Position numbers and translations under genes: made by a program
Part shown: positions 28,776-64,000 of the stretch, one piece after another
Position numbering within the stretch: the stretch's first letter is position 1
Layout: the number at the start of each line of letters is the position of its first letter
DNA from: Gracilariopsis chorda
Lineage: Eukaryota; Rhodophyta; Florideophyceae; Gracilariales; Gracilariaceae
DNA: 64,000 nucleotides
Direction of reading: 5' to 3'
Assembly (NCBI GenBank): GCA_003194525.1
Contig: NBIV01000014.1
Location: forward strand, 471,406 to 535,405
The notes under the pieces: generated by a model
Database searches by the model: none
What the model was told of the DNA's origin: nothing
What the model saw: the letters and a program-made list of their open reading frames with translations, nothing else

Positions 28776-29180
28776 GGGGAGACGCGGACGGGCGTACGGC
28801 CGTCGCGTGAGGCAACGCGCTCTCGCCGTTGTCGCTGCCATTGAGCGCGTCTGCTGCTGCGGCTGCGCGCTGTCAGGGCGGGTGCCGCTGCTCGTCATAG
28901 CGCTGGCGTCACAGCGGCGACAGAGGCGCTTGCCATTGGGCATGCGCCGTGCGCCCACGCTGCACACGTTGCACAGCCCTCTATGCTCCCAATGCCGCAC
29001 ACTGCAATTACGAATCACAGCGACGTGTCCGCTTGCAACTGTTTGTCAACCGCATCGCCCCGCCCCCCCTTTCTCCATCGCCGATCTTCTCCCTGTCTCT
29101 ACAACTCGCGCCCGTTTGCAACCATCTTCTCCCCGTCATCATGCCGCTCACATACTGCAATGTCTTCCCCCATCCCGCGC
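28776..29180. promoter_or_regulatory. Shared intergenic region of divergent antiporter and cell-wall-type gene
   Basis: The two genes start back to back about 510 bp apart. Apart from the TATA box at 29181, no repeats or motifs stand out. The upstream leader of the antiporter frame stays open to 29018 but looks like GC-rich chance coding. Confidence 0.35.
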
Positions 29181-30692: not shown

Positions 30693-32592
30693 GCGCACAC
30701 TGATGTGGAAGCCACGGCGCTTCATCGGTACTGCAGCTGCAACGGCACTGATTGGCGGGTGGTCGTTAGCTTAACGACATGCTGTTGATCTGTGGGAATG
30801 TTGCATGCCTCAGTATCTTTTGTTCCAAGTTGTTCTCAATGCTTCGGTCCTAATGTTCTCGAGAGTGTTTCGAGAAGTGTGCTTTATCATAGTTTCGTGA
30901 TCGCTTGGCCAGTGATATGTTTGACAGCGCGGTATCTACATATCATGGTATACTGGAGAGCACGAAGAGTTGTTGCAATCGCTATTTCAGAGCACTGTCG
31001 CATACCCAAGCAAGGGTATGATACGTAAAAATGACATGATTCTCTTTTGTTTGCTGTTTTGAGCTCCGCTGCACATACTCGTGCACCTATCTTATGCCCG
31101 CGGGCACGAGTGCCCCTTCCCCTACTGCGGGTTGAGTTCAGATTCAGACACACATGACCGGCCCAACCCCATGGGTCCCGGACGGAAACCGAGACTTGAC
31201 GTGGGGTCAGGGCTAAGGTGAACAGTCCGCCCCGTAGATAGTGTATGTACCCTCTGTAGCTGCACGTCTGAAATGCGCGCTATCTACCTGGTCGTCTCGC
31301 TCACCTCTGCGGATTGGACATCTGCGCTCGTTGCGGCGTACCTGTTGTGCCTTCGTCTCAACTATTGTTCGTCGTGCTGTGCTCACTTCACAACGACGCC
31401 TTGCTCCATCTGTTCCATTTTCGTAGCTGCGCCCGCTGCTTTGCTTTTCCGTTCCTACTTCTTACGCCAACCAAATTTCACTTGTATCCAATGCTGCTTC
31501 AGCGCGTGCAGTATGTGCGCTCGCTCCGGCACGGTAGCAAACCCGTGCTTCTGAGAAGGGGGAGTACCTCATACACAAAGCTCCTCCCTATCTCACCTTG
31601 TCGTAGTGAGGGAGCCAGACCACCTGATTCTTGCAGCTAACACGATAAACGACCATAACCTTGCATTCCGAATGTCTTGAAGTGTGTCTACAAACTCATC
31701 TCGACTTTGGTAGGTTTTGCGGAAACGAGTCTCTCGGCAACGGCTTGCGTCCCCGCTTGTGGCGCAATGTATTACTCTGCCCATCGTGAGGTGCCAACCT
31801 TCTCAACCACTTTGCGCTGCTGAATCAGAAGGCAGCCAAAGCGAAACCACGAGTCGCACTTCCGGGGAAGAGGCTCTCCATAAGGTAGCAACTAGCTCCT
31901 CGAGATGGTACAGTACCACGCTTTCGCAGTTTGCTAAATCGCCCGAATTCACACCCATCTACACAGAGACACTATGCACTTGCTACAATACGGGCGGGTG
32001 GTGTTGGGTCTTTGTTAACGTAGTGCGACGGAATGAGATAAAGACAAGTCTGTTCATGAACAAACGCTTTGGTTTCTCAGCCACTTCTGTGACGCAATGA
32101 GCTTCACCTTTGAATGTAACAAACTGCTCAGTCATTAGGGGGAATTCCGCGGAGTGTGTAAGATCATGCGCAACGTGCCGCCATCAGGTCGTTGTCCGCG
32201 TAGTGGAAAGCTCTATCGGAACGTCGCACTAGTCGTTCGCCCAGATTTTCTCCGGATTAGCCACGTGCGAGAACGGTCACGCGCCCTCTCGTTTCTTCAG
32301 TTTTTCTTGGATTCTTTGCAAACACATGAGCCAACTCTTGTTTTGTACCGCAACACACACACACGCACACAATGCTGCACAGAGCCACCCCCAGCGTCGG
32401 TCACAGCGTGATCAAGAGCCGCAATTTTCAACCCGACGTCGCACAAGCTTTGTGTTCGACGCAATCTTCTTGCAATAGTTCCTCTTCAACAAACTGAACT
32501 TCCGCAAGACACTCATTTCGCGTCGCGCAGCCAAGAACCTAGCCAGGAGCCCCTGAAACGGTGTGTATGGATTTACCCAGTGCACGATGAAT
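30693..32592. other. Gene-free stretch of about 1.9 kb
   Basis: Many short ORFs on both strands, none with recognisable features. A CA-rich microsatellite lies near 32351-32370. No transposon protein remains were recognised. Confidence 0.4.
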
Positions 32593-32643
32593 AAGGTGTG
32601 ACGCTAACATCATTGTACTACAATGATGTCAGCGTCACACCTT
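32593..32643. repeat. Near-perfect 51-base palindrome with one-base loop
   Basis: Arms 32593-32617 and 32619-32643 pair over 25 positions with one A-C mismatch around base 32618. The arm begins AAGGTGTGACGCTAACATCA. It lies 248 bp upstream of the IDH ATG. The 25-bp arms would make a small-RNA hairpin or a minimal fold-back element. Confidence 0.8.
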
Positions 32644-32890
32644 TTACAATGATTGTAGAAGCGTTTCATTTATTACTGCTCTCAACGGGATTTCACGGGT
32701 TTGCCATCTGCACGAGCACCCTGCATTCCCTGCTCTGGTGTGCAGATCGGCAATATTTAGCACTAGCTGTGTCACCACGTGTATCTAATCTTAGGGCCTC
32801 ACCCCGTCGCGATTGCAAAGCAGTTCGCTGAAAACCAGACCACTCACTGTTACTTCTCCGTCCGTCGCTTGGGTCGCCCCTATCATCGCG

Positions 32891-37658: not shown

Positions 37659-39650
37659 CTACTCAACACCCATAGCACCGCATACCAAGTCCGCCACAAC
37701 TTCCGCAGCCGTCTGCATAGCGTCCAACAAGCTCGCTTTCTCACCCGGCAACTTTCGAGCCCAAACCGATCGCCGCATCCGTCTAACGCTTCGCACTCCA
37801 CTCTTAACAATACGTTCACGAACTTTTAAAGAGTGCATAAGGGCTCTCTTTTCGGCACGTTCTGCTTGTCTTGCAACCTTTTGTGCTTGACTTTGCACTT
37901 TTTGAGCGTCCTTCTTTTCGCGTTCAATCGCCCTGCGCTGCACTTCAAGCTGAGTTTTCTTTTCCTTTTCAAGTTTATCAGCCTCTTTCTTTCGACGTTC
38001 TTCAAGCATCTGGGCTACCGTTTTGTGTTCCGCCGGCGCTCCACAGTCTAACATGGCTAACTTTGGTTGTAAATGAATGTCTCCCAATACCTCTTTCTCG
38101 GTCTTAATCGGGGTTATTGTATTCATTATGATGCTACTAGCTGTTTCTGCGCTTCGAAGAAGTTGGAAAAGTTTGTGGCATACCATCACATCGCTCGTTT
38201 CCGTTGCTAGAATGTGACGAGCTTTGCTGCAAACTTCTGCATCTGTTCGTCTTTTTTGGACATGGCGAGTTCTGTCCGCAACGTTTTCAACCGAAGCGAT
38301 CTTCACACTAACCTCTTCCGGATCCTCTCGTTTGTACCTTTTCGCAAAATTTGAGTTGAACGGAAACAGGCCTGTGTCTTCAAAAGAGGACTTGATGATT
38401 GGAGGGGAGATTGTCTGATGTGCATAAACTGCACACGCAAGGTTGAATCGAGGTGTACGAGTCTCAGGAACTACTGAGCGTGCGAACTGATCTCTTAGGT
38501 ATCGAAGCGACTCTTTGAATGTTTTGTTGATACGACGGTCGCACGGTTGGAGTATATGTGAGGTGTTTGCCGGCTTGATAACTGGGATACATCGGTTTTT
38601 CTCACATTCCATAACCCAGCGAATGCCCTTTCGCGACGAGTGGCCATCCATCGTTAGAAGGTAAGAACTCGACTCTGGAACATGCCTTCGAACAAAGTTG
38701 TTAACGTGTTTCATGAAACCTTCTAGAATCTGACTATCCATCGAACCATTTTATGTACACTTCACCACAGCATCCGCAGGCATCCAGTTCGGCCGCTGGA
38801 ACTCGTTACAAACTGCAGCGCTCTTCTTGTAAATACCGGGAAGGGGTTCCATCCAGTGCTGCATTACTTTTTTTCCGGCAACGATATAGAATGGAGGGGC
38901 TTTCTTTCCGGATGCAGAGCACACAAGAACGGCGGTAATGTGTTTGTCTACACCTTGCATCTTTTGGGCGACCTTGCATCCGCCCTGTTTTGAAGACTTC
39001 GAGCCATAGGCTTTGGTTGCCTTGCCCCACGTTGCATCCACAGCCGTTTCATCCATGTTCCATATCCGAGATGGATCATCAAGGAGACCACGATTTTCTT
39101 CACCAATCTTACCAACCACATCGAAGAAAGTCTGAATGTGTTCGTATGTCTCTCCTTTCAGCTTTGCATTATCCTTCGGATAATGGGTTTTGAACGTTAA
39201 ATCTCTATGCCTGGCGCGAAAAGATCGAACAGCATCGTCTGATGGGACATTATTTTTCCATCCTGTTCTGCGGTCAGCCGCTACGCGAGCCATAACATAC
39301 TTCAATGTGTCATTATCAACTGCGAATCCGCGATCTGCTGCCTCTTTCAACCTGTGAACAATCAAACTCTCTTCTTCGTGAGTTAAAACCGTTTGGGCTC
39401 CTTTGCGTGAATATGAATTGTCAGTAAGCTGTTGGTTTAATCGGTCGTACGCTTTGCTCTCGATAAGGTGTTTGAGGTTATAAACTGTGCTTTTGCTGAG
39501 ATGGGTGGCTGTGACGATATCGCGGATTTTGTGTTTAGTGTTTTTGTCTTGGAGCATTACTACGGCGTTTTGTTTCATTCTGCGTTGATGCTCCGCTCTG
39601 ACTCGACTTTTTTGAAGTCGGTTGGCTTGTTTGCGCATGGACAGAGCCAT
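37659..39650 (-). pseudogene. Pogo/Tigger-type transposase interrupted by one stop codon
   Basis: Read from the ATG at 39650, the frame continues to 37659 (664 codons) except for one TAA at 38751-38753. Before the stop: a helix-turn-helix (KIRDIVTATHLSKSTVYNLK), a CENP-B-type helical domain, and DDE_1 starting IWNMDETAVDATWG with the first catalytic Asp. After it, in the same frame: LTMDGHSSRKG (second Asp), HILQPCDRRINKTFKE (third) and a long basic coiled C-terminus. All catalytic residues survive, so it was disabled recently, is read through, or the stop is a sequencing error. Tc1/mariner-type ends and TA duplications were not identified. Confidence 0.8.
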
Positions 39651-39674
39651 CGCAAAGATTTGTGGAGGGAACAA

Positions 39675-40366
39675 GGTCTCGAGAGTGTGGAACAGTGACC
39701 TACGGGGAATGGAAAGAAGCTCATGTGCAATAAAGATGACGCCGTCCAGTACGTTTTTATTGGTATCGCGCGTCTACTGTTTGAAGGTTCCGCCTTTTTC
39801 ATATCAAACTCTTTGTCTCATTGAGACAAATGTGATGAGATGATTAGATTTGAAATCGGAGCCAGTATGGCCAAGGTATGAGGTCTGGAAGGACAGTTTC
39901 CAACTTCGACCTTTTTCCAGAATTAGCCTTTTGTGAACGGTACCAACGGTTGTGTTGATACCCTACGTGGACAAAGCGTTGGTGCGCAACTTCAGCGTTC
40001 CTGAGCCAGCTGTGAGGGACGGACCCATTGTCAAAATACAATTCCATTTTGCCGCTAAAACGCACAATACTCTAATACCCAAGGGTACAGGACTACTGCA
40101 GCAGCCGTCAACCCCCGTCAAAGTGCAGCGCACAACGGCCCTTCATGAGCCTGGGCCCCGTTCACTTAGATCCAATATGTCGAGTTTCCCCGTTTCCTTC
40201 CTTCCAATATCCTTGTAAGGAGATGCGATTCTTTTCGTGACAGTGGAGTGCTTCATCTGTATGCACATTATATTTTGTTCTTTTTCAACGCCTAACTGCG
40301 AGAGCACAAGATTGGTAGTCGGAGCAAGACGTATTCCAAAGAGCACTTTTCCACAACCGATATGAA
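39675..40366. other. Gene-free stretch
   Basis: About 690 bases between the pogo transposase and the allantoinase stop. Only short frames; no repeat recognised. Confidence 0.35.
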
Positions 40367-47249: not shown

Positions 47250-47662
47250 TTGTGTAGTGAAGCTGAAATCGTCAAGGGAAACGGGACAACTGAACAAAGA
47301 GAGACGAACCAGAAGCTAAAACCTTCGAAGTCCGAATCCCTACGATCTTTCCCTTTTTGCTGATCCAAGGAACCTTTTTATTTTGTAATTATCCTATTGC
47401 ACAAGGGTACTGAATTTCAGGATTGCTGATCTCGGGCCTTCTCTCCTTCCGTCATCGCTGAGGTTTGCAGTCTAAACCGCATCACCACCATTGCAGTCTA
47501 CAGGTCGGCGTAAGTACAAACGTACCGTCCGTAGATATTGTAATGTATTCCTGAAAACAGGTTGTTTTTTACGTACACAAAACAGCGGAAGTCTTCAGAA
47601 GCGTCATCAGAAGTACCCGGAACTGCACGTCTGCTCCCTCACCCCACTAGACTGACAGAACT
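47250..47662. promoter_or_regulatory. Divergent promoter region
   Basis: 413 bases between two divergent starts (YqeH/NOA1 and DUF3326). Both products look organelle-bound, so the shared promoter may co-ordinate them. No TATA box seen. Confidence 0.3.
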
Positions 47663-48994
47663 ATGCCCTCCATAGAATCCAGTGTTATCGCTATGTTTTC
47701 CCAGAGAAGCCCCGGCCTACTCCACTCGTGTTCATTTCTCACATTCCCAAGCTTCACAAACTCGCAGTTGAAGCGAGCCACTGATGTTCAAGCGCTGCAT
47801 CGGTGCCCGCGTCGCCTTTCTGTCCGAAGTCGAGATGCATTGGTTATGTCTTCGCAGCACACAACAGTGCTCATAGTCCCCACAGGTGTTGGGGCTGCCA
47901 TCGGCGGGTACGCTGGGGATTCACTTCCGGCTGCAAGACTTCTCTCACAAGTCACTGACACGCTCATTACTCACCCGAATGTTCTGAACGGGGCACTAAT
48001 GTATTGGCCAATCCCCAATGCGTTATACGTGGAAGGATACGCTCTTGATCGATTTGCTTGTGGTAAAATGGGTCTCAGCCCAGTGCCATCTACATCAAAT
48101 CGTCTCGGAATAGTACTTGATTCAGGAATGCCCGAAGAGGCCATCCTTCGCCATAGACAGGCCGCAGATGCAGCTCGTGCTACATTAGGCTTGAATATCA
48201 CGCACTGCACGACAACGCCGAAACCATTAGTTGTCGAACTAGCGTCATCGAAAGGAGGCGCTTCATGGGGAACTATCGCTGATCCACAGGCTTTGCTGCA
48301 TTCAGTTCAGCACCTTGTAAAGCATAGCTGTCAGGCTATAGCAGTTGTGTCCCAATTTCCTGAGGAAGACCAAGTACAACTCGCAAACTACCGATCTGGA
48401 AACGCAATTGATGCGATTGCTGGTGCAGAAGCAGTGATCAGCCATCTTGTAACTCGAGAATTCCACGTACCCTGCGCGCATTCTCCATCACTTCAACCGC
48501 TGCCAGCAGATGGTAGCGTTTCACCGAAGGCAGCAGCGGAAGAGCTTGGCTATACATTTTTGTCCTGCGTGCTTGTCGGGCTTTCTCGAGCACCTCATCT
48601 GATTTCCAACAATCGGACGGACGTAGACCCTTCGGTTATTACGGCTGCGAATGTTGACGTCCTCGTCATACCGGCAAATGCCTTTGGTAGCCCTGCAGTG
48701 CTGAGTCTAGCTGGTAGAGCCGACGTAATGGTGATTGCAGTGGACGAAAATGTCACAACACTCGACGTCATAGCATCAAGTGTAGGTATTGATGAATCAA
48801 GGGTCGTTCATGCTAGAAGTTACGCTGAGGCTGCTGGCCTAGTCGCAGCACACAGGGCCGGTATAGCTATCTCGTCGCTTCAAACGGCTGTAGCTCCTTT
48901 ACAGATTCATCCGACAACAGCGCCTTCCACGGATACTGCCCTGCTTCGGACTTCTGACACACTACAACATAGAACAAACTCAGTTCCTCTGTAG
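47663..48994 (+). CDS. DUF3326 protein of cyanobacterial type
   Basis: 443 residues, ATG at 47663. A leader of about 65 residues, rich in Ser and Arg with few acids, looks like a transit peptide. The DUF3326 body starts VLIVPTGVGAAIGGYAGDSL and has THPNVLNGALMYWPIPNALYVEGYALDRF, the family's hallmark. The family is conserved in cyanobacteria and plastid-bearing algae; its function is unknown. The final 40 residues are Thr/Ser-rich. Its stop overlaps the convergent rhomboid gene by 15 bp. The plastid location is inferred from family distribution and leader. Confidence 0.85.
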   Translation: MPSIESSVIAMFSQRSPGLLHSCSFLTFPSFTNSQLKRATDVQALHRCPRRLSVRSRDALVMSSQHTTVLIVPTGVGAAIGGYAGDSLPAARLLSQVTDTLITHPNVLNGALMYWPIPNALYVEGYALDRFACGKMGLSPVPSTSNRLGIVLDSGMPEEAILRHRQAADAARATLGLNITHCTTTPKPLVVELASSKGGASWGTIADPQALLHSVQHLVKHSCQAIAVVSQFPEEDQVQLANYRSGNAIDAIAGAEAVISHLVTREFHVPCAHSPSLQPLPADGSVSPKAAAEELGYTFLSCVLVGLSRAPHLISNNRTDVDPSVITAANVDVLVIPANAFGSPAVLSLAGRADVMVIAVDENVTTLDVIASSVGIDESRVVHARSYAEAAGLVAAHRAGIAISSLQTAVAPLQIHPTTAPSTDTALLRTSDTLQHRTNSVPL

Positions 48995-52699: not shown

Positions 52700-54217
52700 T
52701 TACGTTTCGAACCAAAACCTGTCGTTCTCTACGGAGAGTGTGTGAAGTGCCTGTACAGTTCGTTTGATGCGAACATGCCTGAACTCAACGAGGTTCCATG
52801 CAGCTTCAACCCCTCCCAACACTCTCGATCTCATGTACGCCCTGATCTCATTTTGAAGCATGTAGCTCTGTGCACTGGATTGGCTTTCCGTTCGACTTGA
52901 TACATCCAAATCCTGCTCTTTAGCACCCTTGGAAGCATACTTCATCGGGTATGCTACAGCACAGCCCCCTTGGGTTCGTTCGAAATAGATGTGAGCCTTG
53001 TACGTCATTGTGAGATCTGGATTGTACGGAACCACTTTCAAATCTTCTTTCCTTCTTCTTCAGTAGTTCACTCGGTTTGTGTACTCATTTATCGTTGTTT
53101 CAGCCACAATTTCTTGTCGATCATACCCATATCTGCACCTCCCGTCAGAGGTACGACCACCGCAATATGGAGATGGTCTGTGCATATTGAATTTCTTCAC
53201 CAGTTTTCAGAGTTCCTGGTCCCTGGTCCTCAGTCCAGTCACCCCGAGGGAGTTCGGCTTTAAATAAAAGTTTCAATGATCTCAAGATCTTCAACCACGC
53301 CCCCCCTCCAACCAAAGAAGAATGTGATGATGTGGAGTATTTCTCTCCTGGAACTCAAGTTTGGCGGCAATCTCAATTCCTTTCAAGCCAAAGAGTTCTT
53401 CTGAATTATTCTGTAGATCCTTCATGATTGAATGTACATACTGGTTGTACACTCTTCCAATAAGATCTGGCCTATCAAAAGAACGGCTTCTCTCTCTTTC
53501 TGGAGAAAATGCTCCGGTGTTTTCGTTGTCCATACTAAGCCTTTTCATCTCTTCCCGCCATACGTTCATTGTGATTGTAACGAAAAGCGTAGGGGAGCCC
53601 AGTCGAGTGACCATTGCTTGCACACCCAGTCGTTTTTGTCTCCAGTACGCCGGAGAGGTTTTGTGATTACCGGGAAGGAATAGTTTACCGGGAGGGCCAG
53701 GTTCATCTGTTTCGGTATGATTTCCAGCCTGCAGCTCCCGTTCTTCAATTATTCTCATCTGTTCTGTTTCCAAGTAACGAAGTCTCAAGTCGTCAATGTT
53801 TGTGCTAGTACGAAGAAACCATTACTGAAGAAGAGTACCAGAGTTCAGCAGCACATTATCGGTGTACAGTCTTCGCTGAGAGTTTTCTGCCCATGTTAGG
53901 CTCCTTTCGTCTCGGATGTTCACATCCTTCGATGAAATATATGTTGCTGTATCATATGGGGCATGAATCTCACCGTAAAGGTAGAGCAGTGGAAAAGCTC
54001 CTTTCTCAGCTTCCATTGAATGAGGCTTCAAACGCTTGTACTTGACAACTTGACGTCGAAGATCTCCGGTTGACTTGCGATGGGATTCTCTTCCGCCTAC
54101 CAGCTGGGCAACTGGGGCTTCCGACCTGAACAGTCCACTTGGCTCTACGACGAAAGCTCTCATTGCAAGAGGTCTGCCTCGACTGTCTTCTGGTAACGGT
54201 CCGGCACCAAACCTCAC
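52700..54217 (-). pseudogene. Helitron Rep region (Helitron-like N domain), frameshifted
   Basis: Three pieces in order: 53822-54217, 53291-53788 and 52700-53041. The second has LGSPTLFVTITMNVWREEM, FDRPDLIGRVYNQYV and LEFQERNTPHHHILLWL, which is the Helitron_like_N pattern with the HUH motif degenerated to His-His-His. The third has VVPYNPDLTMTYKAHIYFE and NEIRAYMRSRVLGGVEAAW. Stops and frameshifts between the pieces show the gene is dead. Confidence 0.75.
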
Positions 54218-54462
54218 CTCGATTTGGGCTTCATGGGCACCTTGATATTTCCGGACGACTATTCCTTCGTCGGTGTTTTCGGAATGCTAGTTTGACAATC
54301 AAAAGGGAAAGAATTGAAATGGACGGATATCGACTCTTAAAACCCACTTTTGAATGAATCAATTTCCATCAAAATATTTTCACACATTCAACACTGCTAG
54401 TTTTTTGAAAGTATAAACTAGTAAAGCACTTCACATTTCCAAGTTATTTCGGACCAAAAACC

Positions 54463-54499
54463 GAGTCCGGACTCCGCGAAGTGGAGTCCAGACTCCACT
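54463..54499. repeat. Nested short hairpins at the Helitron/Plavaka boundary
   Basis: GGACTCC at 54469-54475 pairs with GGAGTCC at 54483-54489; overlapping it, arms 54480-54488 and 54491-54499 form a second hairpin with a two-base loop. The second ends in CACTA followed by CTACAT, reminiscent of the termini of CACTA-like elements. It may mark the left end of the Plavaka-type element. No matching right end was found. Confidence 0.35.
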
Positions 54500-54596
54500 A
54501 CTACATACCTTCACATGTGAACGTGAGATTGAAAATCTGACCGGACCACCGGAACTGCCCCTTCAAATAGAAGGATAGGATGCTCAGATAAATACA

Positions 54597-54602
54597 TATA
54601 TA
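54597..54602 (+). promoter_or_regulatory. TATA-like element ahead of the Plavaka transposase
   Basis: TATATA 26-31 bp before the first in-frame ATG (54628) and 230 bp before the ATG at 54832. With a normal 25-30 base spacing, transcription would begin at about the first ATG, which favours the second ATG as the start. Confidence 0.3.
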
Positions 54603-54831
54603 GGAAATACATTAGAGTTTACAAAACATGATAGCCCTCGCTATCCTTCACTCGTTGTCAGTGTCTGCGGCCTTGCATAGCATGCACCAGTCCACGAGCC
54701 AGCGCAAAACGCTCGGCATCACCTGCTCCACTTCATCCCCGTGCGCCATAATAATTACGCTCCCGCATTTCGCTCTCCAACCCCTTTGCTCCCCTTTCTC
54801 CTTCCAATCCTTCAACTCTCCTTCCCGCACC

Positions 54832-57348
54832 ATGTTCCCCTGTTGCTACCCTCGCTGCTCCTTCCACGGCCGCACCACATACTCTCTTCAGAGTCACCAA
54901 CGCAGGTGCCCCCATCGCCTCACCGCCAACAAGCGTTCCTCCTCCACAGCCACCGCTCCAGTTCAGTTCCCTCCCAGGACCAAGAAGCGAAAATCCGTTC
55001 CCAACCTCTCCATCAATTCTCCTCCCCTTCCCTCTCACCGTCCTTCCGACAACGTCCCCCTCGCCGATGATGATCCATATGAACTTCAACAGGCTTCCCT
55101 CTCTCTTCAAACCCAAGACGCTTACCATATCGCAAGTCACGCCATCGGCTCCGTCTCCTCCTCAAACCCCCTTCTCCCGCCCCCTTCTCGTTCCCCTTCC
55201 CCTCTCGCCGACAACCCTCATCTCGAACAACTCGTCCTCTACATCTCCTCCATCGCATCCTCCGTCAGCACCCGCAAAGCAGACGAGCTCATCTCCATCC
55301 TCAACCATCCAGACTTCTCCAAGTCCTCCTTCCAGACCTCCATCTCCTCCGCCAGGCAGTGCCTCGCACTGCAAGAGGACCTCTTCAAGCAACGCATCAG
55401 CTCCAACGGCTTCATCCCTTCCACCATCACAGACAAGCGCAACACCTTCTCCGCAACCCTCTTCCAGAAACGTGCCATCGACGTCCTCAAGCAACAACTC
55501 GCACTCGCACACCTCAACAACACCTTCTTCCAGCCGGTATCTCAATCTTTCTCATCTTCTTCGTCTTCTGGTCACCCGGCTTTCGCACATCCCATGGCTG
55601 CAGCCCTCGGAAAGAAAGTCGTCCCAGCCATCAAACAGGAAATTATGCAGTCCCCCGTCGATGACATCGTCTGGCACACCCCCCAGGAAACCGGTATCGA
55701 ATCATTCATCGGCCTCGTCCAGCTCTACTCGGACAAGTCCGCAACCTCCCTGAAAAGCTCCTCCGTCAATTCCTACCCCCTCCACGTCACGTTTCTCAAC
55801 TTCTCCGATGCCCTCCGCCGAAAGTGTATATCCGAAAATCTCACACTCCTCGGATACCTTCCAACCTCCTTCTCCCCGTTTACCGCCTTCGACGACGGCG
55901 GCGACTACGTCCCGAAATCATCCTCCAACATCCCACGCGAGACCAAAATGAACCTCATTCAGCGCGCCATCTCTACCATCCTCAACCCACTCCTCACCTC
56001 TGCGCTCCCAGGATTCTCCTTCCGTGACGCTCACGGTGTCCTCCGCCACTGCCACCCCATCCTCGCCAGCTATTGCGCAGACATCCCCGAAGCAAAGGAC
56101 ATCCTCGCCATCTCCCACGGAACACGGCCGCAGCACCCTTGCCCGAGATGCACCGTCCCTCGGGAACACCTCTTCCTCAATACAGATCCCATCCCCTTCC
56201 GCACACAACTCCAAACTCGAACCAATCGCAGACAGCACACCTGCCTTCTCCGCGAATCCGAGGAAGCGCAACTCGCCCGGAAACCAAAAGTGGCACGCAC
56301 CAAAAAAGAAGAGGCAGCAACAGCACTTCATTCTCTCTCCCTCGCAAAGTACACTTCTCTCTTCGAATCATACCCCATCTTCAACATCACTCCGCTTCTC
56401 TCTTCTTACAACATCTTCGCCTTCGAGCCACTGCATAACTTCCACCTCGGCGTCTCTAAACTCATCAAAGCCACCGCAATCGAACGTCTCCGATCCGATT
56501 CCCTCTTCTCCATTGTCGGTCCCAGCAAATCCAAGAGATCCTTCCAATCCATCCGCACCTCCATCCTCAAACACTCCAACTCCATTCTTGCGGCCATCGA
56601 AAAAGATTCCCCTGCAACTGGACTCCACATAGACTTCTCCACCTCCGACAACGCTCAAGCTCTTAACGGCTTCTTCACCACAGAAGGACTCCGTGGAATG
56701 CTCGAAGCAAAAGATTACCGCGCACTCGACATGGTATTCCCCTTCATCGGAGCATTCTTCGACAGATGCTGCAACGAAATCGACTCCTCCCCAATCACTT
56801 CCGTCTTCACCAAGTACACAGATCTCGTTCTCTACGCCATGCGATACAACTCCACTTCCGAATGGACCGAAGACTCTCTCAAATCACTCGAACGACAGAT
56901 CAGATCCTTCAAACTCACAGCCACCACCGTCCTCGGACCCTACCACTCTTCGCACCTCGGTACCCTCAAGTTCCATCTCCTCGATCACATCGTCGACGAC
57001 ATACGTAGATACGGAGGTCTGCACTTCAACGACGCAGGCATATTCGAACATGCCCACGTCCTCTTCAAATCTCACTACTCCAAGACATCCAAACATTCTC
57101 CAATTCCTCATGGTGCCGTTCCCTCACTCTCTCCCATGCCACCCCAATTATGTTCTCCAGAGCAAGCGGGAGATACTCACCAAACAACTTTGAAAACAAT
57201 AACTGCCGTTTTCCTCCACGGCCCACATTCGTGTCCAACGCAGTCAAAACACATCCGATCCAAGCATCCAAGCGTGCCAAATGCATCACAGTTCCATCCA
57301 CATAATCTGTCTTCCCTTCGCCTCCCGGTACCACCTCATATCCCATAA
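54832..57348 (+). CDS. Plavaka-like (CACTA/KDZ-related) transposase
   Basis: 838 residues from the ATG at 54832; the frame also opens at 54628, adding 68 low-complexity residues. The chosen ATG directly precedes a C2H2-type finger (CCYPRCSFHGRTTYSLQSHQ). The body has Plavaka landmarks: FIGLVQLYSDKSATSLKSSS then PLHVTFLNFSDALRRK and LLGYLPTSFSPF (first acidic site), HPCPRC zinc knuckle, and FEPLHNFHLGVSKLI. The last conserved part is HFNDAGIFEHAHVLFKSHYSKTSK near 57090. Beyond it the protein reads antisense to the neighbouring gene and is low-complexity, so the true C-terminus may be spliced or truncated. No stop breaks the domain. Confidence 0.7.
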   Translation: MFPCCYPRCSFHGRTTYSLQSHQRRCPHRLTANKRSSSTATAPVQFPPRTKKRKSVPNLSINSPPLPSHRPSDNVPLADDDPYELQQASLSLQTQDAYHIASHAIGSVSSSNPLLPPPSRSPSPLADNPHLEQLVLYISSIASSVSTRKADELISILNHPDFSKSSFQTSISSARQCLALQEDLFKQRISSNGFIPSTITDKRNTFSATLFQKRAIDVLKQQLALAHLNNTFFQPVSQSFSSSSSSGHPAFAHPMAAALGKKVVPAIKQEIMQSPVDDIVWHTPQETGIESFIGLVQLYSDKSATSLKSSSVNSYPLHVTFLNFSDALRRKCISENLTLLGYLPTSFSPFTAFDDGGDYVPKSSSNIPRETKMNLIQRAISTILNPLLTSALPGFSFRDAHGVLRHCHPILASYCADIPEAKDILAISHGTRPQHPCPRCTVPREHLFLNTDPIPFRTQLQTRTNRRQHTCLLRESEEAQLARKPKVARTKKEEAATALHSLSLAKYTSLFESYPIFNITPLLSSYNIFAFEPLHNFHLGVSKLIKATAIERLRSDSLFSIVGPSKSKRSFQSIRTSILKHSNSILAAIEKDSPATGLHIDFSTSDNAQALNGFFTTEGLRGMLEAKDYRALDMVFPFIGAFFDRCCNEIDSSPITSVFTKYTDLVLYAMRYNSTSEWTEDSLKSLERQIRSFKLTATTVLGPYHSSHLGTLKFHLLDHIVDDIRRYGGLHFNDAGIFEHAHVLFKSHYSKTSKHSPIPHGAVPSLSPMPPQLCSPEQAGDTHQTTLKTITAVFLHGPHSCPTQSKHIRSKHPSVPNASQFHPHNLSSLRLPVPPHIP

Positions 57349-59173
57349 ACTCTGCCAGCACTTCTACCGCAGCTCCGTTCTTAAAGTACATGTCCTCCCC
57401 ACCAAAGTCCCTTAACCTTCGAGCAACTTGAAATCCAGAATATGTAAGATCGTCAATCGCACTCATTCTCCATGCACATAAGATTCGGCTCTTCTCTACC
57501 TCCTTTCCCATTAACTTGCTTCTCGCTTCCTCTAACTGCTTCTTCAATTCCACATCAAGCTCCGTCCCCTCCTGAGGTCTCACACGTCTTGCTATCAAGT
57601 CATACCCAAGTAGCGAAAACAACTTTTCCCGTGCCGCCCGCTTCCGAACCCCAATCACATCGCTCAACGTTTGCTTCATACGCTGCCTCAAACACCTGTC
57701 CCGAGCTACGTCCTGCATACACTGAATCTTCTTACCCGCTTGTCGAATCGACTCCCATCTATGCCCTTCAATCTCAACACCAATCAAATACTTCAAAAGT
57801 TCATTGCTTCCTCCTCGCAAACTCGGTGTATACGCCCTCATCTCCGATACGATCTCAAAGGGACACCGAGGAACAATTTCGTTCCCTCCCACTACGAATA
57901 CACTCGACTCCGTCCCTTTCCCTAAGATCTCACACCGGTTCGTCCAGTTCCTCTCCATTCGATCCGTAGTAAAACAAAGCTCCGACACTTCCAACTTTGC
58001 GTAATACAATATCCTATCATACACTACCCTAGCAAATCCATAAAAGCTCTCGTCCACATCAACCACATACTTTTTACGCCTCGTCAAATCAGTGTCTCCC
58101 CCTTCAGCTCTTCTTCTCTCCGCACTCCTTACCTTTATCCCTTCCCTCAAACTGTCAATCAGCATGTTCTTCTCGATCATTTCTTCCCTCATCCTCTTCA
58201 GTTCCTCCTGTGTCAGCTTCAAAGATATCTTTAAAGTAGTATGGTCCTCCTTAAGGCTTCCAAGTTCTCCCTTTAGCGAATTCACCTTCTGAACCAATGT
58301 AGGTCTAGACAACACACCGATCTCATCATCATCAAGGTCCTTCACAACATCGGTACTCACCACTTGCTCATCACGGGGTGACTTATTCACATTCTCTTCC
58401 GCCTCCAATCCCATTTCGAAAGATCGGTCAAATGATACCGAAATTCTTCGCCTTCTCTCCCGCATTCCTTCCGGTGTACGCAGCGGATTGCGTCCGCTTT
58501 CTTTCTCTACGTCAGGGACGATGTCCATATTCCTCGATCGGATGGGAGTGCCACCATTTCCATCTTGATCTCTCGTGGCCTCATTCTCATGAAATACATT
58601 AGAACACCGCCCGTGCTTCTCACGTGCACTTCCTTCGGTACACCTCCCCTTCGTAATCTCATCTTCGCGCTCTCCTTCGCTCTCAGGCAAATAAACATTC
58701 ACCTCTTCTTGCGCGCGCTCTTGATTACCACTGGGAGCTCCACGTCGCTTGGAGTTACGACACTCCTGCACCTCCTTTCCACACGACAAGACCTTCCTCA
58801 CTCCTGAGCCTTCAGCGCGTGCCTGCTCGGAAACACCATCTCCCTCCACTCCGCTCCTGTCGTGTTTCGCAGCTTCCTCGTTGGATCTCCGCTTCATCCG
58901 TTGCACGCGCCTTGGTTCCTTGCCAGACCGCGCCTCTCGGGAGAGCTCGGGCCTCAAATTATCGTTTATCGTGCGATCCGATGCGCCACTTGGGTTTGAA
59001 CCCCCTGTCCCTCCTTTTCTCCCGGACAAACCGCTCCTCGGAACGCGGGTAGCTCCTACCTGAGGTCCTTTCGTGCCACTCGGACTTCGTTCCTCCACAC
59101 CCCTCCGTCGCGTTTTCGGTGCATTCGTCGCGCCTTCCCTCCCGGCGCCTCTCTTCTTCCCCTTCACGGGCAT
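57065..59173 (-). CDS. 702-residue basic coiled-coil protein of the transposon zone, unrecognised
   Basis: 702 residues from the ATG at 59173; earlier codons are open but lack an ATG. Residues 1-220 are very basic and low-complexity (GKKRGAGREG at the start). About 290-360 is a coiled coil (VQKVNSLKGELGSLKEDHTT). A compact C-terminal domain from about 370 on has YAKLEVSELCFTTDRMERNW, GGNEIVPRCPFEIVSEMRAY, a Cys-containing helix (IQCMQDVARDRCLRQRMKQ) and LFSKLFGEYLPLALENIIGV. No family is recognised. Its last 284 bp overlap the transposase antisense. It lies 260 bp downstream of the methyltransferase-SET gene on the same strand. A DNA-binding accessory protein of the element is a guess. Confidence 0.6.
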   Translation of the reverse strand: MPVKGKKRGAGREGATNAPKTRRRGVEERSPSGTKGPQVGATRVPRSGLSGRKGGTGGSNPSGASDRTINDNLRPELSREARSGKEPRRVQRMKRRSNEEAAKHDRSGVEGDGVSEQARAEGSGVRKVLSCGKEVQECRNSKRRGAPSGNQERAQEEVNVYLPESEGEREDEITKGRCTEGSAREKHGRCSNVFHENEATRDQDGNGGTPIRSRNMDIVPDVEKESGRNPLRTPEGMRERRRRISVSFDRSFEMGLEAEENVNKSPRDEQVVSTDVVKDLDDDEIGVLSRPTLVQKVNSLKGELGSLKEDHTTLKISLKLTQEELKRMREEMIEKNMLIDSLREGIKVRSAERRRAEGGDTDLTRRKKYVVDVDESFYGFARVVYDRILYYAKLEVSELCFTTDRMERNWTNRCEILGKGTESSVFVVGGNEIVPRCPFEIVSEMRAYTPSLRGGSNELLKYLIGVEIEGHRWESIRQAGKKIQCMQDVARDRCLRQRMKQTLSDVIGVRKRAAREKLFSLLGYDLIARRVRPQEGTELDVELKKQLEEARSKLMGKEVEKSRILCAWRMSAIDDLTYSGFQVARRLRDFGGEDMYFKNGAAVEVLAEFMGYEVVPGGEGKTDYVDGTVMHLARLDAWIGCVLTALDTNVGRGGKRQLLFSKLFGEYLPLALENIIGVAWERVRERHHEELENVWMSWSSEI

Positions 59174-59433
59174 AGCTGTTAGATAATGTCGCGTGCTTGT
59201 GGCGGGGAAACACCGCGGCCCTAAAACGACGTGTGCCGAGCAGGAAGAACTCACGAAAAGCCACGAAGGGTTTTTGGCATTAGTTCCACCTCTCTGAAAA
59301 CATGAAAAAAATTACCCTGATGTTCCTACCACTCGTTAACCGAATGGGTCCCCTGACATATCGCCCCCCCATCAAGGACTTTTTCACTAAAGTAGCTATG
59401 TGGTTTACAAACTCGGTTTCTTTAGTATATAAG

Positions 59434-61454
59434 CTAGTCAATTACAATAGCTCCATCATCTATACGCAGATGCGTCTGAGTATGCCAATCATAGACATTT
59501 CCGTATTCACTAAAGATTTCGTCCCCTTCCTCTATTTCAACAAGGGCTTCCAGCTTGATAAGCCTGTAGTCTGTTAGTTTCCTACGGTTCAGCCCTAGGC
59601 CAGGTGAACGTTTCATCCGCACGTTAGCCTCACGCTTTTTCACAAGGCCATCTACCGTAGCATCTAAGTCCTTATCGCCTTCGATATACTTAGGGTCGTT
59701 AATATACCCTGCAACACAAAACGGAGCTGGAACAACCCAAAGAATCGGGTTGGTTTGTTTTCCATGGTTCAGTGTTCTCCGATGAGGTAGTGCAGAGAAC
59801 TGATGCCCATGAACATCCACCTCCACCGCATATTTTCGAAAGCGATCCTTCGTCACACCCATAACTCCGTCCCCGTAGGTCTTGTGCACTTCTTTACGGT
59901 TCGTCAGATCATGATACACGAGTGTCCCATAGAAGTAGCACACTACCTCCCCTACAGCAATTCGACGAGTTGCAAACACTCCAACACCAGCGTTATCGTG
60001 GCGAATAGTAGACTTGCTGATTCGTAGTCCATAATGCACAGCTTCCATTGCCAGCAGCGAGTTCATGTTCTCCAGATTCATCCTACCCTGCAGCACGCTA
60101 GGCCATTGATCGAAGGTCCTGCTCTTACCCAATTTGGCTACCTCTTCACTGCTCCACAGCGTCGACAGGAACTGGACGACGTGTGGGGGAAGCATCTGGT
60201 ACGGAGAAAAGCCATTGACTGCCTTCCATGACAAGGTATGCCTCAATCTGCCCATTGGAAATGCGATGACAACAGTATGGGCCATCTTCCTGAGCTCTTG
60301 GTTCTTCTCAAGATTGGTGTTTCCCTCCCGGATTATAGAAGCAAAACGAACAATAGCAGCATGCTTTGCGTGTTCAAAGCAAGCTTTATCGTCTTCACAT
60401 CCTACAAATATCCGGTGCTTCGGCAGTTCCATGCATGCCATCGCTGTAGAGAACGTCCCCGCAAAGAGGTCAACCACTAGGTCTCCTGGCTGACTAAACC
60501 TGCAAATGAGTTCCTTCAGCAATGCCCTACACTTCTGTTCCGGTCGCACCTTTTTCCTCGTAGTGATTCTCTCCGAGTTTGTCACATTCCATAGCAGAGT
60601 TTCGCCATAAGACATAGGCGGCACCTGGTCTATGATTGCGTGATATGCCGGGTAGCGTGAAGGGATAAAATTAAAGTTCTCATAGTTCACCATTCTGTGC
60701 TGTTGGGAATACGGGACCCCAGAGCGCACTGCATGTACGGCATACTCCGACGTCTGGTACAGCCGACAGCTCCGCCTCCCCGGATTACCCATCGAGTTGC
60801 CCATGGATCGTACGAACTGGAGGGGTTGTTCGTCCACGACAAAAGAAAAACGAGTTGTGCCAGAGTCATCTGTGTACGTAACACTCCGCAGCACCTCCCG
60901 CCACTTCTGTATCTGATCCCACGAGCAGAACAATATAACATGCCCACCGGGACGTAGCAACTTTGAAATTCTTTTCCCTGCCCGGGCCATGGTCTTCTCG
61001 GTGAGAACATCATGACCACTGTTCTCCCGATTACGCTCCGCACGAGTCCCATATGGGGGATCCGAAAGCACGAACTGTACCCTTCCTTCAATGGATAGTT
61101 CGCTGTCCCCGGACTTGTTGTCGTCGACTTCGACAAGGTCTTGGAAACTGCAGTTGTGAAGACGGAAGCTGCGGGACATCTGCCTCTCACAGTACTCGTA
61201 CGACATCAACTGATCTAAAGTCTTCGGATACGGTGGAGGTTGAACACCAGTCTCCTTCACGCTGTACGTCAGTCTCTGAGACAATGTCGTTGTCTGCAGA
61301 CCAGTAGTAGCTCTTGGAGCAGCCACACTCTCCACCACCTCTTCGACCTCATTATCCCCACCCAGCTGTTCAGAAAAATCAAAAAATTAGTGTAAAATGA
61401 ACCATGCATCTTCCGCCCATGACCTACTAGGTCGTACCGCAGATGTCCGTTCAT
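59434..61454 (-). CDS. DNA amino-methyltransferase (N6A/N4C type) fused to SET domain
   Basis: Exons 61428-61454 and 59434-61365 join in frame to 652 residues. The 62-base intron has GTAGGT, a CACTAAT branch-like site and CAG. Residues 100-345 form a prokaryote-type amino-methyltransferase: catalytic DPPYGTR at 111-117 comes before the SAM motif DLFAGT at 308-313 followed by FVGCEDD. This is the beta-class order of N6-adenine/N4-cytosine enzymes; DPPY favours N6-adenine. Residues about 455-635 are a SET domain: GVGVFATRRIAVGEVVCYFYG, YINDPKY, REANV and GDEIFSEYG, so its SAM and lysine sites look intact. The pair could write DNA and histone marks together. No stop or frameshift. Neighbours are transposon genes. 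Confidence 0.85.
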
Positions 61455-61509
61455 TCCAGACACTAATTTTAAACTAATTTTTGATTTTCGGAACTGCTGG
61501 CCGCCACGT

Positions 61510-61595
61510 GGTGGAGGTCCCAGGACCGGAGTGTCGTGGCGCTTCATCAGGCGCCTGATGAAGCGCCACGACACACCGGTCCACGGACCTCCACC
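61510..61595. repeat. 86-bp palindrome upstream of the methyltransferase-SET gene
   Basis: Two 43-base arms meet at 61552/61553 without a loop. The inner 44 bp (61531-61574) are perfect; the outer part has three mismatches per arm. It starts 55 bp upstream of the methyltransferase-SET ATG. It may be two element ends fused head to head, a recombination or replication hairpin, or a protein-binding site. Confidence 0.9.
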
Positions 61596-61741
61596 CCCAA
61601 AAACAAACTTCGAATACCAATGCAAAATCATTACAGGTGCATTGCAGCGCCGCCTAAATGAACTTAATGGTTGTCAGGAAACGTCTTCAATACCATGTAT
61701 TTCAAAAGTATAGATGCTCACGTCGCCTGAACCGAGCAGAC

Positions 61742-62974
61742 GTGATCACGAGAGCATCTTACGCGACTGGGGTGCCACGACAACTTGATCACGCGAACGC
61801 TTCAAGATTGCAGCGTGGTTCTCGGCCGGAATAAAGAGTTCTACGAAGACGAAGAAGCATTGTCCCAGGAAATCCGCCTTCGCTGCGAAGGCCTGACATA
61901 GAAATGCCGACTACGCGAGGAAAAGCGAAAAGCATGGGCTTGGTGCGCATATGCGTTTCTGTTTTCATTAGCCATTGGTGCTCTTTATGGGGTATTGAAA
62001 CCGCTTTTGATGCATTATGTGGTAGGGGATGTTCGAATGTCTCCGAAGATGTTGATTGTGGTAATTCTGGAGACTGTTTTGCATTTGTTTATCTTCGATA
62101 TGGTGTTTGCATTGCATAGAAGGCATTTTGGTTCATTGGCATACGTACCTTTGCGGGACAGCCAGCGAATGGCACGGATTTCTGTGATTCGAAAACAGAC
62201 TACTTGGATTCACGATGGCAGGTCTTTTGCCGTTGAATGTTTGTATTTTTGTTGGCTATCACTTCTTGGAAGCGCCAATTTCGATTGGAATGGAACTTAG
62301 GACTGGTGCTCTTGCATTTTCACTGGTGGTTTCATGTTTGGGGGTATGTCGTATGTGGTTGAACGGCTAACGATGTTTTTTGTGACTAGGGACAGCATTA
62401 ACAATGAGAGAGATAGCTCCCATATGTGCAGAGAGGTAGTATTGGGCTGATTTTGGATGTGTGCAGGACCGTATACGGTGGTTTGAATAAGGTGCTTGGG
62501 TTTAGAGATGGTGTGGCTACTATGAGGCTCTATATCGGAAGGGTGTTCCCTGTTGTGTTTACCTACTTGATTTTCACGTTCCTGAGCGATACTTCTTTGC
62601 ACAAGGTAAGGGGACTCGCGCCTGTAGTGGAGAATACTATCTTTTTCGTGCTGCTTCTTTTGGGTATGGCTGTGGATATGGACTTTGGAGTACCATTTTC
62701 GAAGGTATGTTGCGAATCTAGGAGAGCACTGTAGGCCTGTTGGTTCTCGTTTTGAACCATTTCTTTAGACCACGTTCGTAGTTCTACCTGTACATACCTA
62801 AGTTAGTGTGATAGAGTTGTAAACTGAAGGAAGTGTTAAACTAATGTCGTTCTAAATTTTTCGTTTCAGATTATTGGTGGGACACGACTCGGTGGGAAAT
62901 GGCGCGAAAACGGGCGAGTGAAAAAATGCGGTTGGATAAGTACCTGGGGAGTGCTCGCTTGGTGGTTGGGTTAG
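61742..62974 (+). CDS. Multi-exon polytopic membrane protein, unrecognised, possibly broken
   Basis: A hydrophobic reading chain can be followed: an exon ending 62221 (AYAFLFSLAIGALYGVL; ILETVLHLFIFDMVFAL), an exon from 62301 (TGALAFSLVVSCLG), a long exon from 62467 to 62704 (IGRVFPVVFTYLIFTFL; NTIFFVLLLLGMAVDMDF) and a last exon 62870-62974. The borders 62222/62300 and 62705/62869 are good GT-AG sites with CTAA-type branches. The splicing between 62345 and 62466 is unclear; the best frames need introns of only 31-42 bases. Upstream coding-like sequence (EDEEALSQEIRLRCEGL) is cut from it by one TAG at 61901. Five to seven helices predicted. Family unknown. Confidence 0.4.
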
Positions 62975-63012
62975 GAACGGGAGCGCCGTTGTGGTGGGGC
63001 GTGTAAGTAGCC

Positions 63013-63766
63013 ATGTCTAGCGAAGACGTGAATGATGAGGAGCTACTGGCGTTGTTGGATAAAGCGGAGAAGAGGGAGGTCCCCGAGACGCCTCCAAGGA
63101 CGAAGAAGGAGGAGGAAGGGAAGGGTGATGGTGAAGAGGGCAAGGGAAGGAACGTTGTTGGGTTCGGGGAGCTGGGGTTGGGACGATGATGGGAGGGATG
63201 GGGGGAGGGAAGTGAGGGCGAGGGAAGTCGAGGAGGACGGGGAGGAGGAGGAGGTGGGCGCGGGCGAATGAGTCGGTTTTTACCCGCGATGTGAAGAAAC
63301 TGGTGAGGAGCGTGGGCGGAGGGCTTAAGGAGCGTTTGGATGAGTGTATCGAGAGGGTTGTGGTGGAGATGGGGGGATGGTGCTGAGTTCTTCAGAGGAA
63401 GGGTGCCTATGGGTGCTGTGGCTGAGCTGCGTAGGAGGGCAAGGGAGGCTGGGGTGTGGGCGGAAATGCATGTCGATGGGGTTGTGGCGGGTGTGGGTGA
63501 GGAGCTGAGGAGACTGTGGAAGGAGAACGAGGAGATGCGTAGACGGGTTTTGGTGTTGGAGAAGCAACTTTTACTGGTTGGTAGGGCTGTGCATAATCGA
63601 GGAAATGCAGAAGAAGGTGTGTGATGCGGAAGGGAGAGCTGTTGTCGGGGAAGGCACTCCTGTTACTCCCGGTCGAGGGGCTGTAAGGAAGAGGTTGGAG
63701 GAGAAGGACGACGAAGGAATAGAAGGTGAGAGTCGGTTGAAGAGGAGGCGTGGAATGAGAGGATAA
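63013..63766 (+). pseudogene. Frame-broken acidic/coiled-coil protein
   Basis: The ATG at 63013 opens an acidic helix (SSEDVNDEELLALLDKAEKR) ending at a stop at 63189. Coding-like sequence then continues in other frames: 63261-63381 (VFTRDVKKLVRSVGGGLKERL), 63400-63624 (EELRRLWKENEEMRRRVLVL, a leucine zipper) and 63590-63766 (a Lys/Arg-rich end). The breaks fall near long G runs. Either several frameshifts have killed it or homopolymer errors hide one gene. The composition recalls the 702-residue protein at 57065, but no direct similarity was seen. Confidence 0.4.
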
Positions 63767-63769
63767 GGA

Positions 63770-64000
63770 GAAGAAGGATGGTAAGGATGGTAAGGGAGGT
63801 TTTATGTTTGGTGTTCAAGAGTGTGGGTGCCACCCAGTGAGGCTGAGAGAACAGTTGGGCTCCAAACTTTGACAATTTGAAGTTTGAAATCCACGAGATG
63901 GAAATATGTAAGTTAATTTGGGTTGCATGGGGGTGGGGCCGCTGGCCGCTACGCCGGCCAGCGCCATTTCGAGCCCTCTAACTAGCGTTTAGTGAGCAAA
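63770..64000. other. Right-edge stretch with a GC hairpin
   Basis: No gene. A GC-rich hairpin has arms 63940-63948 and 63955-63963 with a six-base loop, followed 15 bases on by CTAACTAG. This recalls a Helitron 3' end, but the base after each CTRR is C rather than T. Confidence 0.35.

What the first reader, a model, noticed from the sequence alone, without database searches (positions are those of the whole stretch)
59434..61454. DNA amino-methyltransferase fused to a SET domain in a transposon zone
One intact protein carries a beta-class N6A/N4C methyltransferase (DPPY before the DLFAGT SAM motif) and a SET domain with its conserved ends. The first marks DNA, the second usually histone lysines. 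Eukaryotic 6mA enzymes are normally of the MT-A70 type with a different motif context, so a prokaryote-type domain suggests capture by transfer. Its position beside a Plavaka transposase suggests an element that writes its own chromatin state, either silencing itself to be tolerated or protecting its DNA. I know of no described system with this exact pairing.
Basis: partly seen in the sequence, partly recalled or inferred. Interest (0 to 1): 0.92.

Follow-up and report, generated by a model that had tools for sequence, protein, structure and literature searches.

The report
Algal gene joining DNA-methylase and SET
An apparently intact gene from what is probably an alga joins a bacterial-style DNA-methylating enzyme to a SET domain of the kind that usually methylates histones, which would let one protein mark both DNA and chromatin, although neither activity is tested and its tie to the neighbouring jumping gene is unproven.

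Summary
One open frame (59434-61386, minus, 650 codons) carries a beta-class amino-methyltransferase (PF01555, E 1.5e-18, DPPY before FxG) and a C-terminal SET domain (PF00856, whole profile, E 5.9e-5). The methylase core is modelled well and resembles CcrM-type N6-adenine enzymes; SET could not be modelled. The proposed first exon and intron lie inside a long near-palindrome and are doubtful; Met61 gives 590 residues with both domains. The neighbour is a Plavaka transposase. Its ends are uncertain: the preferred candidate (54367-59322, TTC duplication) leaves the gene 112 bp outside, weaker ones enclose it, so self-written transposon chromatin is unproven. A cyanobacterial-type gene 11 kb away suggests an alga. 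No close relative was found in phages, plasmids or viral contigs; eukaryotic databases could not be searched. Seven paper searches pairing SET with DNA methylation listed no such fusion. Most likely a prokaryotic or phage DNA methylase captured by a eukaryote and coupled to a histone-type writer: a new variant on the bdelloid N4CMT theme.

The parts
59434..61386 (-). MT-SET open frame, 650 codons plus TAG stop; first Met inside it is residue 61 (codon 61204-61206), giving 590 aa
   Evidence: longest ORF in 200 shuffles 242 codons
60364..61080 (-). PF01555 N6_N4_Mtase, residues 103-341, permuted beta class
   Evidence: E 1.5e-18; AF2 core blocks with pLDDT about 90; Foldseek to CcrM, M.BceJIV, M1.HpyAVI
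61051..61062 (-). catalytic motif IV DPPY, residues 109-112
   Evidence: DPPY found in 78 of 80 viral-contig ORFs
60445..60471 (-). SAM-binding motif I DLFAGTFST, residues 306-314
   Evidence: an aromatic residue in place of the second Gly also occurs in 4 of 80 relatives
60034..60255 (-). helical linker between the domains, residues 378-451
   Evidence: AF2 secondary structure at low confidence, block pLDDT about 30-75
59500..59988 (-). PF00856 SET domain, residues 467-629, whole profile; N-terminal GVGVF and C-terminal GDEIFSEYG present, INDP where most SET domains have NHSC, no post-SET cysteines
   Evidence: sequence; consensus motif names recalled; AF2 of this part failed
61510..61595 (.). 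43+43 nt palindrome with no spacer, 93% complementary, upstream of the gene
54616..57348 (+). Plavaka transposase ORF, 910 aa stop to stop; neighbour, probably not the same element
   Evidence: PF18759 E 1.7e-21
57065..59173 (-). ORF2, 702 aa from the Met at 59173, no Pfam or PHROG family; convergent with the transposase
54367..59322 (.). preferred candidate for the whole Plavaka element: CATCA..TGATG ends, TTC on both sides; weak
   Evidence: 20 of 1000 shuffles as good; inverted repeat beyond CATCA not significant, 632 of 2000
53294..53821 (-). Helitron_like_N of a decayed Helitron, same strand as MT-SET; helicase-like remnants in broken frames down to about 50.1 kb
   Evidence: PF14214 E 1.7e-21; frames read by eye
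47651..48991 (+). DUF3326 host gene, used to place the host
   Evidence: PF11805 E 7.5e-138; 79 of the 80 loci kept bear cyanobacterial names

Best explanation
The gene encodes a two-headed methyl writer. Its N-terminal half is a permuted beta-class DNA amino-methyltransferase of prokaryotic or phage type, most likely making N6-methyladenine (DPPY, CcrM-like fold). Its C-terminal half is a SET lysine methyltransferase domain of eukaryotic type, joined by a helical linker. A eukaryote, probably an alga, or a mobile element in it captured the methylase and fused it to SET, so that DNA methylation and lysine methylation of a nearby histone are laid down at the same place. Shown: one open frame, both domain families, conserved methylase motifs and modelled methylase core. 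Inferred: catalysis by either half, the base and lysine, the coupling, the silencing or protecting role, and the fusion history. The nearest Plavaka is more likely a neighbour than the carrier, by weak evidence.
For: Both domains above curated cut-offs in one frame. Methylase: DPPY and FxG motifs in beta order; conserved columns shared with six named relatives and 28 viral-contig relatives; Foldseek E 6.2e-12 to CcrM (6pbd), M1.HpyAVI with target TM-score up to 0.76, bdelloid N4CMT 8s9o E 4.6e-10. The sequence relatives seen are phage, archaeal, bacterial or viral-contig enzymes, 18-30% identical in the alignments, with short segments up to about 47%. SET: whole profile matched; weak PDB matches are eukaryotic KMT2 and KMT5A enzymes, best E 0.017. 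Eukaryotic, photosynthetic setting: eukaryotic genes and a cyanobacterial-type DUF3326 gene. Precedent for coupling an amino-methylase to chromatin: N4CMT (PMC8885841, passages).
Against: SET scores only 1.5 bits above cut-off in the full protein, is not modelled, and has INDP in place of the usual NHSC, so it may be inactive or act on a non-histone protein. DPPY does not by itself fix 6mA over 4mC. No second copy in the window and no ortholog was found, so there is no test of selection. No expression data. The start of the protein is unsettled. Mean model confidence for the whole chain is low (pLDDT 53.7). Codon usage does not distinguish the frame (-0.010 in frame against -0.027 and 0.005 in the two other frames).
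Confidence: 0.5

Rival explanations
1. Transposon cargo (not exclusive of the best explanation): MT-SET is an accessory gene of a mobile element, either the Plavaka itself (candidate ends 54717-63191), another element, or the decayed Helitron that the Plavaka may have split, and it serves to hide, silence or unsilence that element.
For: Transposase ORF ends about 2 kb from the gene; the Helitron remnant is on the same strand. The CATCA..TGATG pair 54717-63191 (2-bp duplication, 12 of 20 alike) would enclose transposase and gene; the pair 58330-62012 (3-bp duplication, 12 of 20) would enclose the gene but not the transposase; the unrestricted best pair 53497-61872 (21 of 30) would enclose both. 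Transposons carry TET/JBP genes in fungi, Plavaka included, and SET genes in Phytophthora (PMC12730594, passages).
Against: The pair with a 3-bp duplication that holds the transposase excludes the gene. None of the enclosing pairs is beyond chance: 54 of 1000 shuffles gave a pair with 2 bp or more and 12 of 20, 388 of 2000 for the repeat of 54717-63191 itself, 5 of 60 for 53497-61872; 58330-62012 begins inside ORF2 and was not tested separately. No Helitron ends were sought. No second copy in the window.
Confidence: 0.3
2. Only the methylase works: the SET half is a degenerate or binding-only module that steers the DNA methylase to chromatin, as the chromodomain is thought to do in bdelloid N4CMT.
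For: INDP replaces NHSC (consensus recalled), the SET score is marginal in the full protein, and the fold could not be modelled.
Against: The whole SET profile is covered with both ends kept, and the frame is open throughout. The failed model is uninformative because it had no alignment.
Confidence: 0.25
3. Endogenised viral gene: the pair comes from a large DNA virus or virophage-like element and is a relic.
For: The methylase relatives include many viral contigs and phages; endogenous viral DNA carrying a Dam methyltransferase is reported in another protist (PMC11244446, passages).
Against: Of the 28 viral-contig relatives aligned none exceeds 28% identity. Of 80 relatives, the 9 with ORFs over 330 aa end at most 22 residues after the methylase match, so none of these carries a C-terminal SET; the other 71 are too short to hold both domains in that order at full size, but were not searched for SET. 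Three single-protein scans of viral contigs found nothing.
Confidence: 0.1
4. Already widespread and ordinary (not exclusive of the best explanation): the fusion is a standing, unnamed family in algae and their relatives, and only looks new because eukaryotic databases were not searchable here.
For: No eukaryotic sequence collection was available; single-protein scans reach close relatives only.
Against: Untested. PMC8885841 says that the bdelloid N6_N4 methylase has no eukaryotic homologs (passage), which if it holds generally argues against a widespread family.
Confidence: 0.35

Closest known systems
Bdelloid rotifer N4CMT (PF01555 plus chromodomain)
   Same: Captured prokaryotic permuted amino-methylase in a eukaryote, chromatin domain C-terminal; its structures match the model (8s9o, E 4.6e-10)
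   Different: Chromodomain reads lysine methylation, SET would write it; SPPY and 4mC there, DPPY here; N4CMT has five conserved intron positions and activity tested in E. coli (PMC8885841, passages)
CcrM and M.BceJIV, N6-adenine DNA methyltransferases
   Same: DPPY (recalled for these two) and fold
   Different: 17-20% identity in the structural alignments, free-standing bacterial enzymes, no SET
MetB of early-diverging fungi
   Same: Bacterial-type 6mA writer gained by a eukaryote (PMC13297926, passages)
   Different: PF02384 family, not PF01555; no SET mentioned in the passages seen
SET genes of HarbingerS and MuDR transposons in Phytophthora
   Same: SET methyltransferase gene carried by DNA transposons (named in PMC12730594, passage)
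   Different: No DNA methylase in the chain is mentioned there; here the gene is probably outside the element
Transposon-borne TET/JBP genes in fungi, including PlavakaB
   Same: DNA-modifying enzyme near a Plavaka transposase (PMC12730594, passages)
   Different: Acts on 5-methylcytosine; lies inside elements with defined ends

Membership tests
N6_N4_Mtase (PF01555), beta-class amino-methyltransferase | Profile match above the curated cut-off | tested here: met
   68 bits against 26.7, profile 1-220 of 221
N6_N4_Mtase (PF01555), beta-class amino-methyltransferase | (D/S)PPY before FxG, permuted order | tested here: met
   DPPY at 109-112, FAG at 308-310
N6_N4_Mtase (PF01555), beta-class amino-methyltransferase | Fold of solved beta-class enzymes | tested here: met
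   Foldseek to CcrM and others, core blocks of the model with pLDDT about 90
N6_N4_Mtase (PF01555), beta-class amino-methyltransferase | Methyl transfer to adenine N6 or cytosine N4 of DNA | not testable with these tools
   needs enzyme assay
SET domain (PF00856) | Profile match above the curated cut-off | tested here: met
   23.9 bits against 22.4 in the full protein, 27.4 for the half alone
SET domain (PF00856) | NHSCxPN-type pseudoknot motif (motif recalled) | tested here: inconclusive
   INDP at that place, then a long insert before REANV; placed by eye
SET domain (PF00856) | SET fold | tested here: inconclusive
   single-sequence model with mean pLDDT 29
SET domain (PF00856) | Lysine methylation | not testable with these tools
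   needs enzyme assay
MT-A70 (usual eukaryotic 6mA family) | MT-A70 profile (PF05063), DPPW | tested here: not met
   no MT-A70 match up to E 1, and DPPY instead of DPPW (DPPW from PMC8885841). Human METTL3 chains do appear in the fold search, at E 6.5e-5 and weaker, far below the beta-class enzymes
PlavakaB transposon cargo | Gene lies between CATCA..TGATG ends with a 2-3 bp duplication (ends from PMC12730594) | tested here: inconclusive
   the 3-bp candidate that holds the transposase excludes the gene, the 2-bp candidate encloses it; both weak
Helitron cargo | Gene lies between Helitron 5' and 3' ends | not tested
   only strand and neighbourhood seen

The most novel reading that the evidence does not exclude
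A mobile element of an alga carries a single-chain epigenetic writer that lays down DNA N6-methyladenine and a histone lysine mark together on its own copies, a self-contained heritable chromatin state written by one protein of mixed bacterial and eukaryotic origin.
Probability: 0.12. Interest if true: 0.92.

Novelty: new variant of a known kind. Interest (0 to 1): 0.6.

Why it matters
If both halves work, one protein would couple DNA amino-methylation and histone lysine methylation by covalent fusion, a coupling that the bdelloid system is proposed to reach through separate readers and writers. It would be a further instance of a prokaryotic DNA methylase recruited to eukaryotic chromatin, with another domain than the bdelloid case, and would make the disputed question of functional 6mA outside the MT-A70 family directly testable in an alga.

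Tried and rejected
Close relatives: whole protein, SET half and methylase half in viral contigs gave no relative. Phages gave 61 records (20 rows seen) and plasmids 12 (12 rows seen); every row seen covers the methylase half only. ORF2 and a 500-aa piece of the Plavaka transposase gave no relatives in viral contigs. DUF3326 gave no match in plasmids.

SET structure: the full-length model with 28 methylase relatives left residues 449-638 below pLDDT 50; the SET half alone failed. I did not look for bacterial SET proteins to deepen that alignment: I had no genome to centre such a search on, and from memory some of them are injected effectors.

Transposon ends: for the CATCA..TGATG pair 54367-59322, 20 of 1000 and 18 of 1000 Markov shuffles were as good with a 3-bp duplication, 54 of 1000 with 2 bp or more. 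A gapped comparison of the first 40 bases gave no support beyond CATCA: 632 of 2000 shuffles as good for 54367-59322 and 388 of 2000 for 54717-63191. Over the whole window 26 of 1687 CATCA..TGATG pairs at 1.5-12 kb have a 3-bp duplication, and 3 of these have 11 or more of 20 bases alike, among them 58330-62012, which encloses the gene without the transposase. Without the CATCA rule the best pair is 53497-61872 (21 of 30), matched or beaten in 5 of 60 shuffles. TGT, CAC and CA ends were also tried and not used.

Codon usage gave no usable signal. The tRNA scan and the Rfam scan at gathering scores found nothing.

Papers: ten searches. Seven of them (15, 16, 27, 28, 33, 41, 81) paired 'SET domain' with a DNA- or adenine-methylation term; their listings are capped (20 of 338, 20 of 245; the other five were listed in full) and I saw titles and starts of abstracts. 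PMC8885841, PMC12730594, PMC13297926 and PMC11244446 were read as passages, and one short section of PMC12730594 in full. Two papers that I recalled as relevant (looked up by DOI) are not held. So 'unpublished' is only as wide as these searches.

Full report
What is there. The frame 59434-61386 on the minus strand is open for 650 codons and ends in TAG. Shuffling the bases of 59001-62000 two hundred times never gave an ORF longer than 242 codons. Pfam finds N6_N4_Mtase (PF01555) at residues 103-341, E 1.5e-18, over almost the whole profile, and SET (PF00856) at 467-629, E 5.9e-5, over the whole profile; the halves searched alone give E 4.3e-19 and 4.8e-6.

The methylase half. DPPY at 109-112 comes before DLFAGTFST at 306-314, the permuted beta order. 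Named relatives are the PhiCh1 adenine methylase (27% identity, E 9e-11), other phage enzymes and a few plasmid-borne bacterial and archaeal ones. A motif scan of viral contigs gave 152 relatives, of which 80 were kept. Of their 80 ORFs, 78 have DPPY, and 4 have an aromatic residue where this protein has Phe in place of the second Gly of motif I, so that change occurs elsewhere in the family. AlphaFold2 with 28 of these relatives gives pLDDT near 90 for the core blocks, although the mean for the whole chain is only 53.7. Foldseek puts CcrM first (E 6.2e-12), then M.BceJIV and M1.HpyAVI, with the bdelloid N4CMT at E 4.6e-10 and human METTL3 at E 6.5e-5. DPPY and CcrM suggest N6-adenine, but that is inference. 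No MT-A70 profile match was found up to E 1.

The SET half. Both ends of the domain are readable: GVGVFATRRIAVGEVVCYFYG and VEIEEGDEIFSEYG. The middle has INDP, then an insert, then REANV, where most SET domains (from memory) have NHSCxPN. There are no post-SET cysteines. PDB sequence matches are weak and are mostly KMT2 and KMT5A enzymes (best E 0.017). No model could be made. Activity is open.

The 5' end. I would not build on that exon. Met61 (codon 61204-61206) gives 590 residues with both domains complete; the AF2 helix 57-73 begins four residues before it, which leaves the point open.

The neighbourhood. The ORF 54616-57348 (+) is a Plavaka transposase. ORF2, 57065-59173 (-), has no known family. 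According to PMC12730594 (passage) PlavakaB elements end in CATCA..TGATG with 2-3 bp duplications. Two left and eight right candidates around the transposase give 16 pairs; two have a duplication of 2 bp or more and at least 9 of 20 bases alike: 54367-59322 (TTC, 12 of 20) and 54717-63191 (GG, 12 of 20). The first holds transposase and ORF2 and ends 112 bp before the MT-SET stop; the second would enclose MT-SET and begins about 115 bp before the transposase ATG. As good a 3-bp result arose in 20 of 1000 shuffles (18 of 1000), a result with 2 bp or more in 54 of 1000, and the repeats beyond CATCA are no better than chance for either. Two further pairs would enclose the gene: 58330-62012 (3-bp duplication, without the transposase) and 53497-61872 (no CATCA ends, 5 of 60 shuffles as good). 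So I favour 'outside the Plavaka' at roughly two to one and no more; that is a judgement.

The Helitron. Left of the Plavaka is a Helitron in decay on the minus strand (PF14214, E 1.7e-21; broken helicase-like frames read by eye). With the Plavaka taken out, MT-SET would lie next to it in the same direction, but the joined site shows no frame linking the two; one frame is open for 83 codons across the joint and belongs to neither.

The host. No genome is held for the window. The other genes are of eukaryotic type: EFL1, LTV1, Mob1, mitochondrial NAD-IDH and others. The DUF3326 gene at 47651-48991 gave 445 candidate stretches in prokaryotic genomes, 365 of them relatives; of the best 80, which alone were listed, 79 bear cyanobacterial names (genera judged from memory) at 52-58% identity, and one, L140, is titled a Gracilibacteria MAG. 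The frame also has about 70 residues before the domain. That is what a plastid-derived gene looks like, so the host is probably an alga. A red alga would fit the long single-exon genes, but this is a guess. In a protist, genes of Plavaka-flanked giant repeats have their only database hits in lineages such as dinoflagellates or red algae (PMC11244446, passage).

How it most likely works. A DNA methylase of prokaryotic type and a histone-type lysine methylase in one chain would put both marks at the same place. In bdelloids the parallel enzyme reads a histone mark and writes a DNA mark, and SETDB1 variants are suggested to close the loop (PMC8885841, abstract and passages). Here the loop would be in one chain. 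Silencing of transposons is the likeliest role by that analogy; protection of a mobile element is the rival. Neither was tested.

Novelty. Seven of the ten paper searches paired SET with DNA or adenine methylation, and no DNA-methylase/SET chain appeared in their partly capped listings; four papers were opened, as passages. Eukaryotic sequence databases were out of reach, so a standing algal family cannot be excluded. I rate it a new variant of a known kind, captured amino-methylase plus chromatin domain, with interest 0.6.

Noticed in passing
61510-61595, 11864-11928, 32588-32648, 39799-39843, 5474-5512: Five near-perfect palindromes with 0-1 nt spacer and unrelated sequences (arms 19-43 nt, 73-94% complementary); four of the five lie within about 150 bases upstream of a long stop-to-stop frame (MT-SET, WD40 at 12015, IDH at 32795, and 38754-39773 beside a pogo-like DDE_1 frame).
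   Followed up: partly
47651-48991: DUF3326 gene of cyanobacterial type with an N-terminal extension in a eukaryotic contig; 79 of the 80 loci kept bear cyanobacterial names.
   Followed up: partly
57065-59173: ORF2 of 702 aa, rich in charged residues with coiled-coil-like stretches by eye, no family, convergent with and overlapping the Plavaka transposase frame; possibly the second protein of the element.
   Followed up: partly
1-1997: DDE_Tnp_4 transposase next to an opposite-strand DUF6818 protein, which looks like a two-gene Harbinger element.
   Followed up: no
5962-6912, 7943-9157, 9754-10731: Three AIG1-type GTPase frames within 5 kb, a local gene family.
   Followed up: no
27006-29045: Na/H exchanger frame that also has EF-hand matches, these below the curated cut-off.
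   Followed up: no
62874-63800: A second purine-rich, coiled-coil-like stretch on the plus strand in shifting frames; ORF2 has no tblastn match there at E 1.
   Followed up: partly
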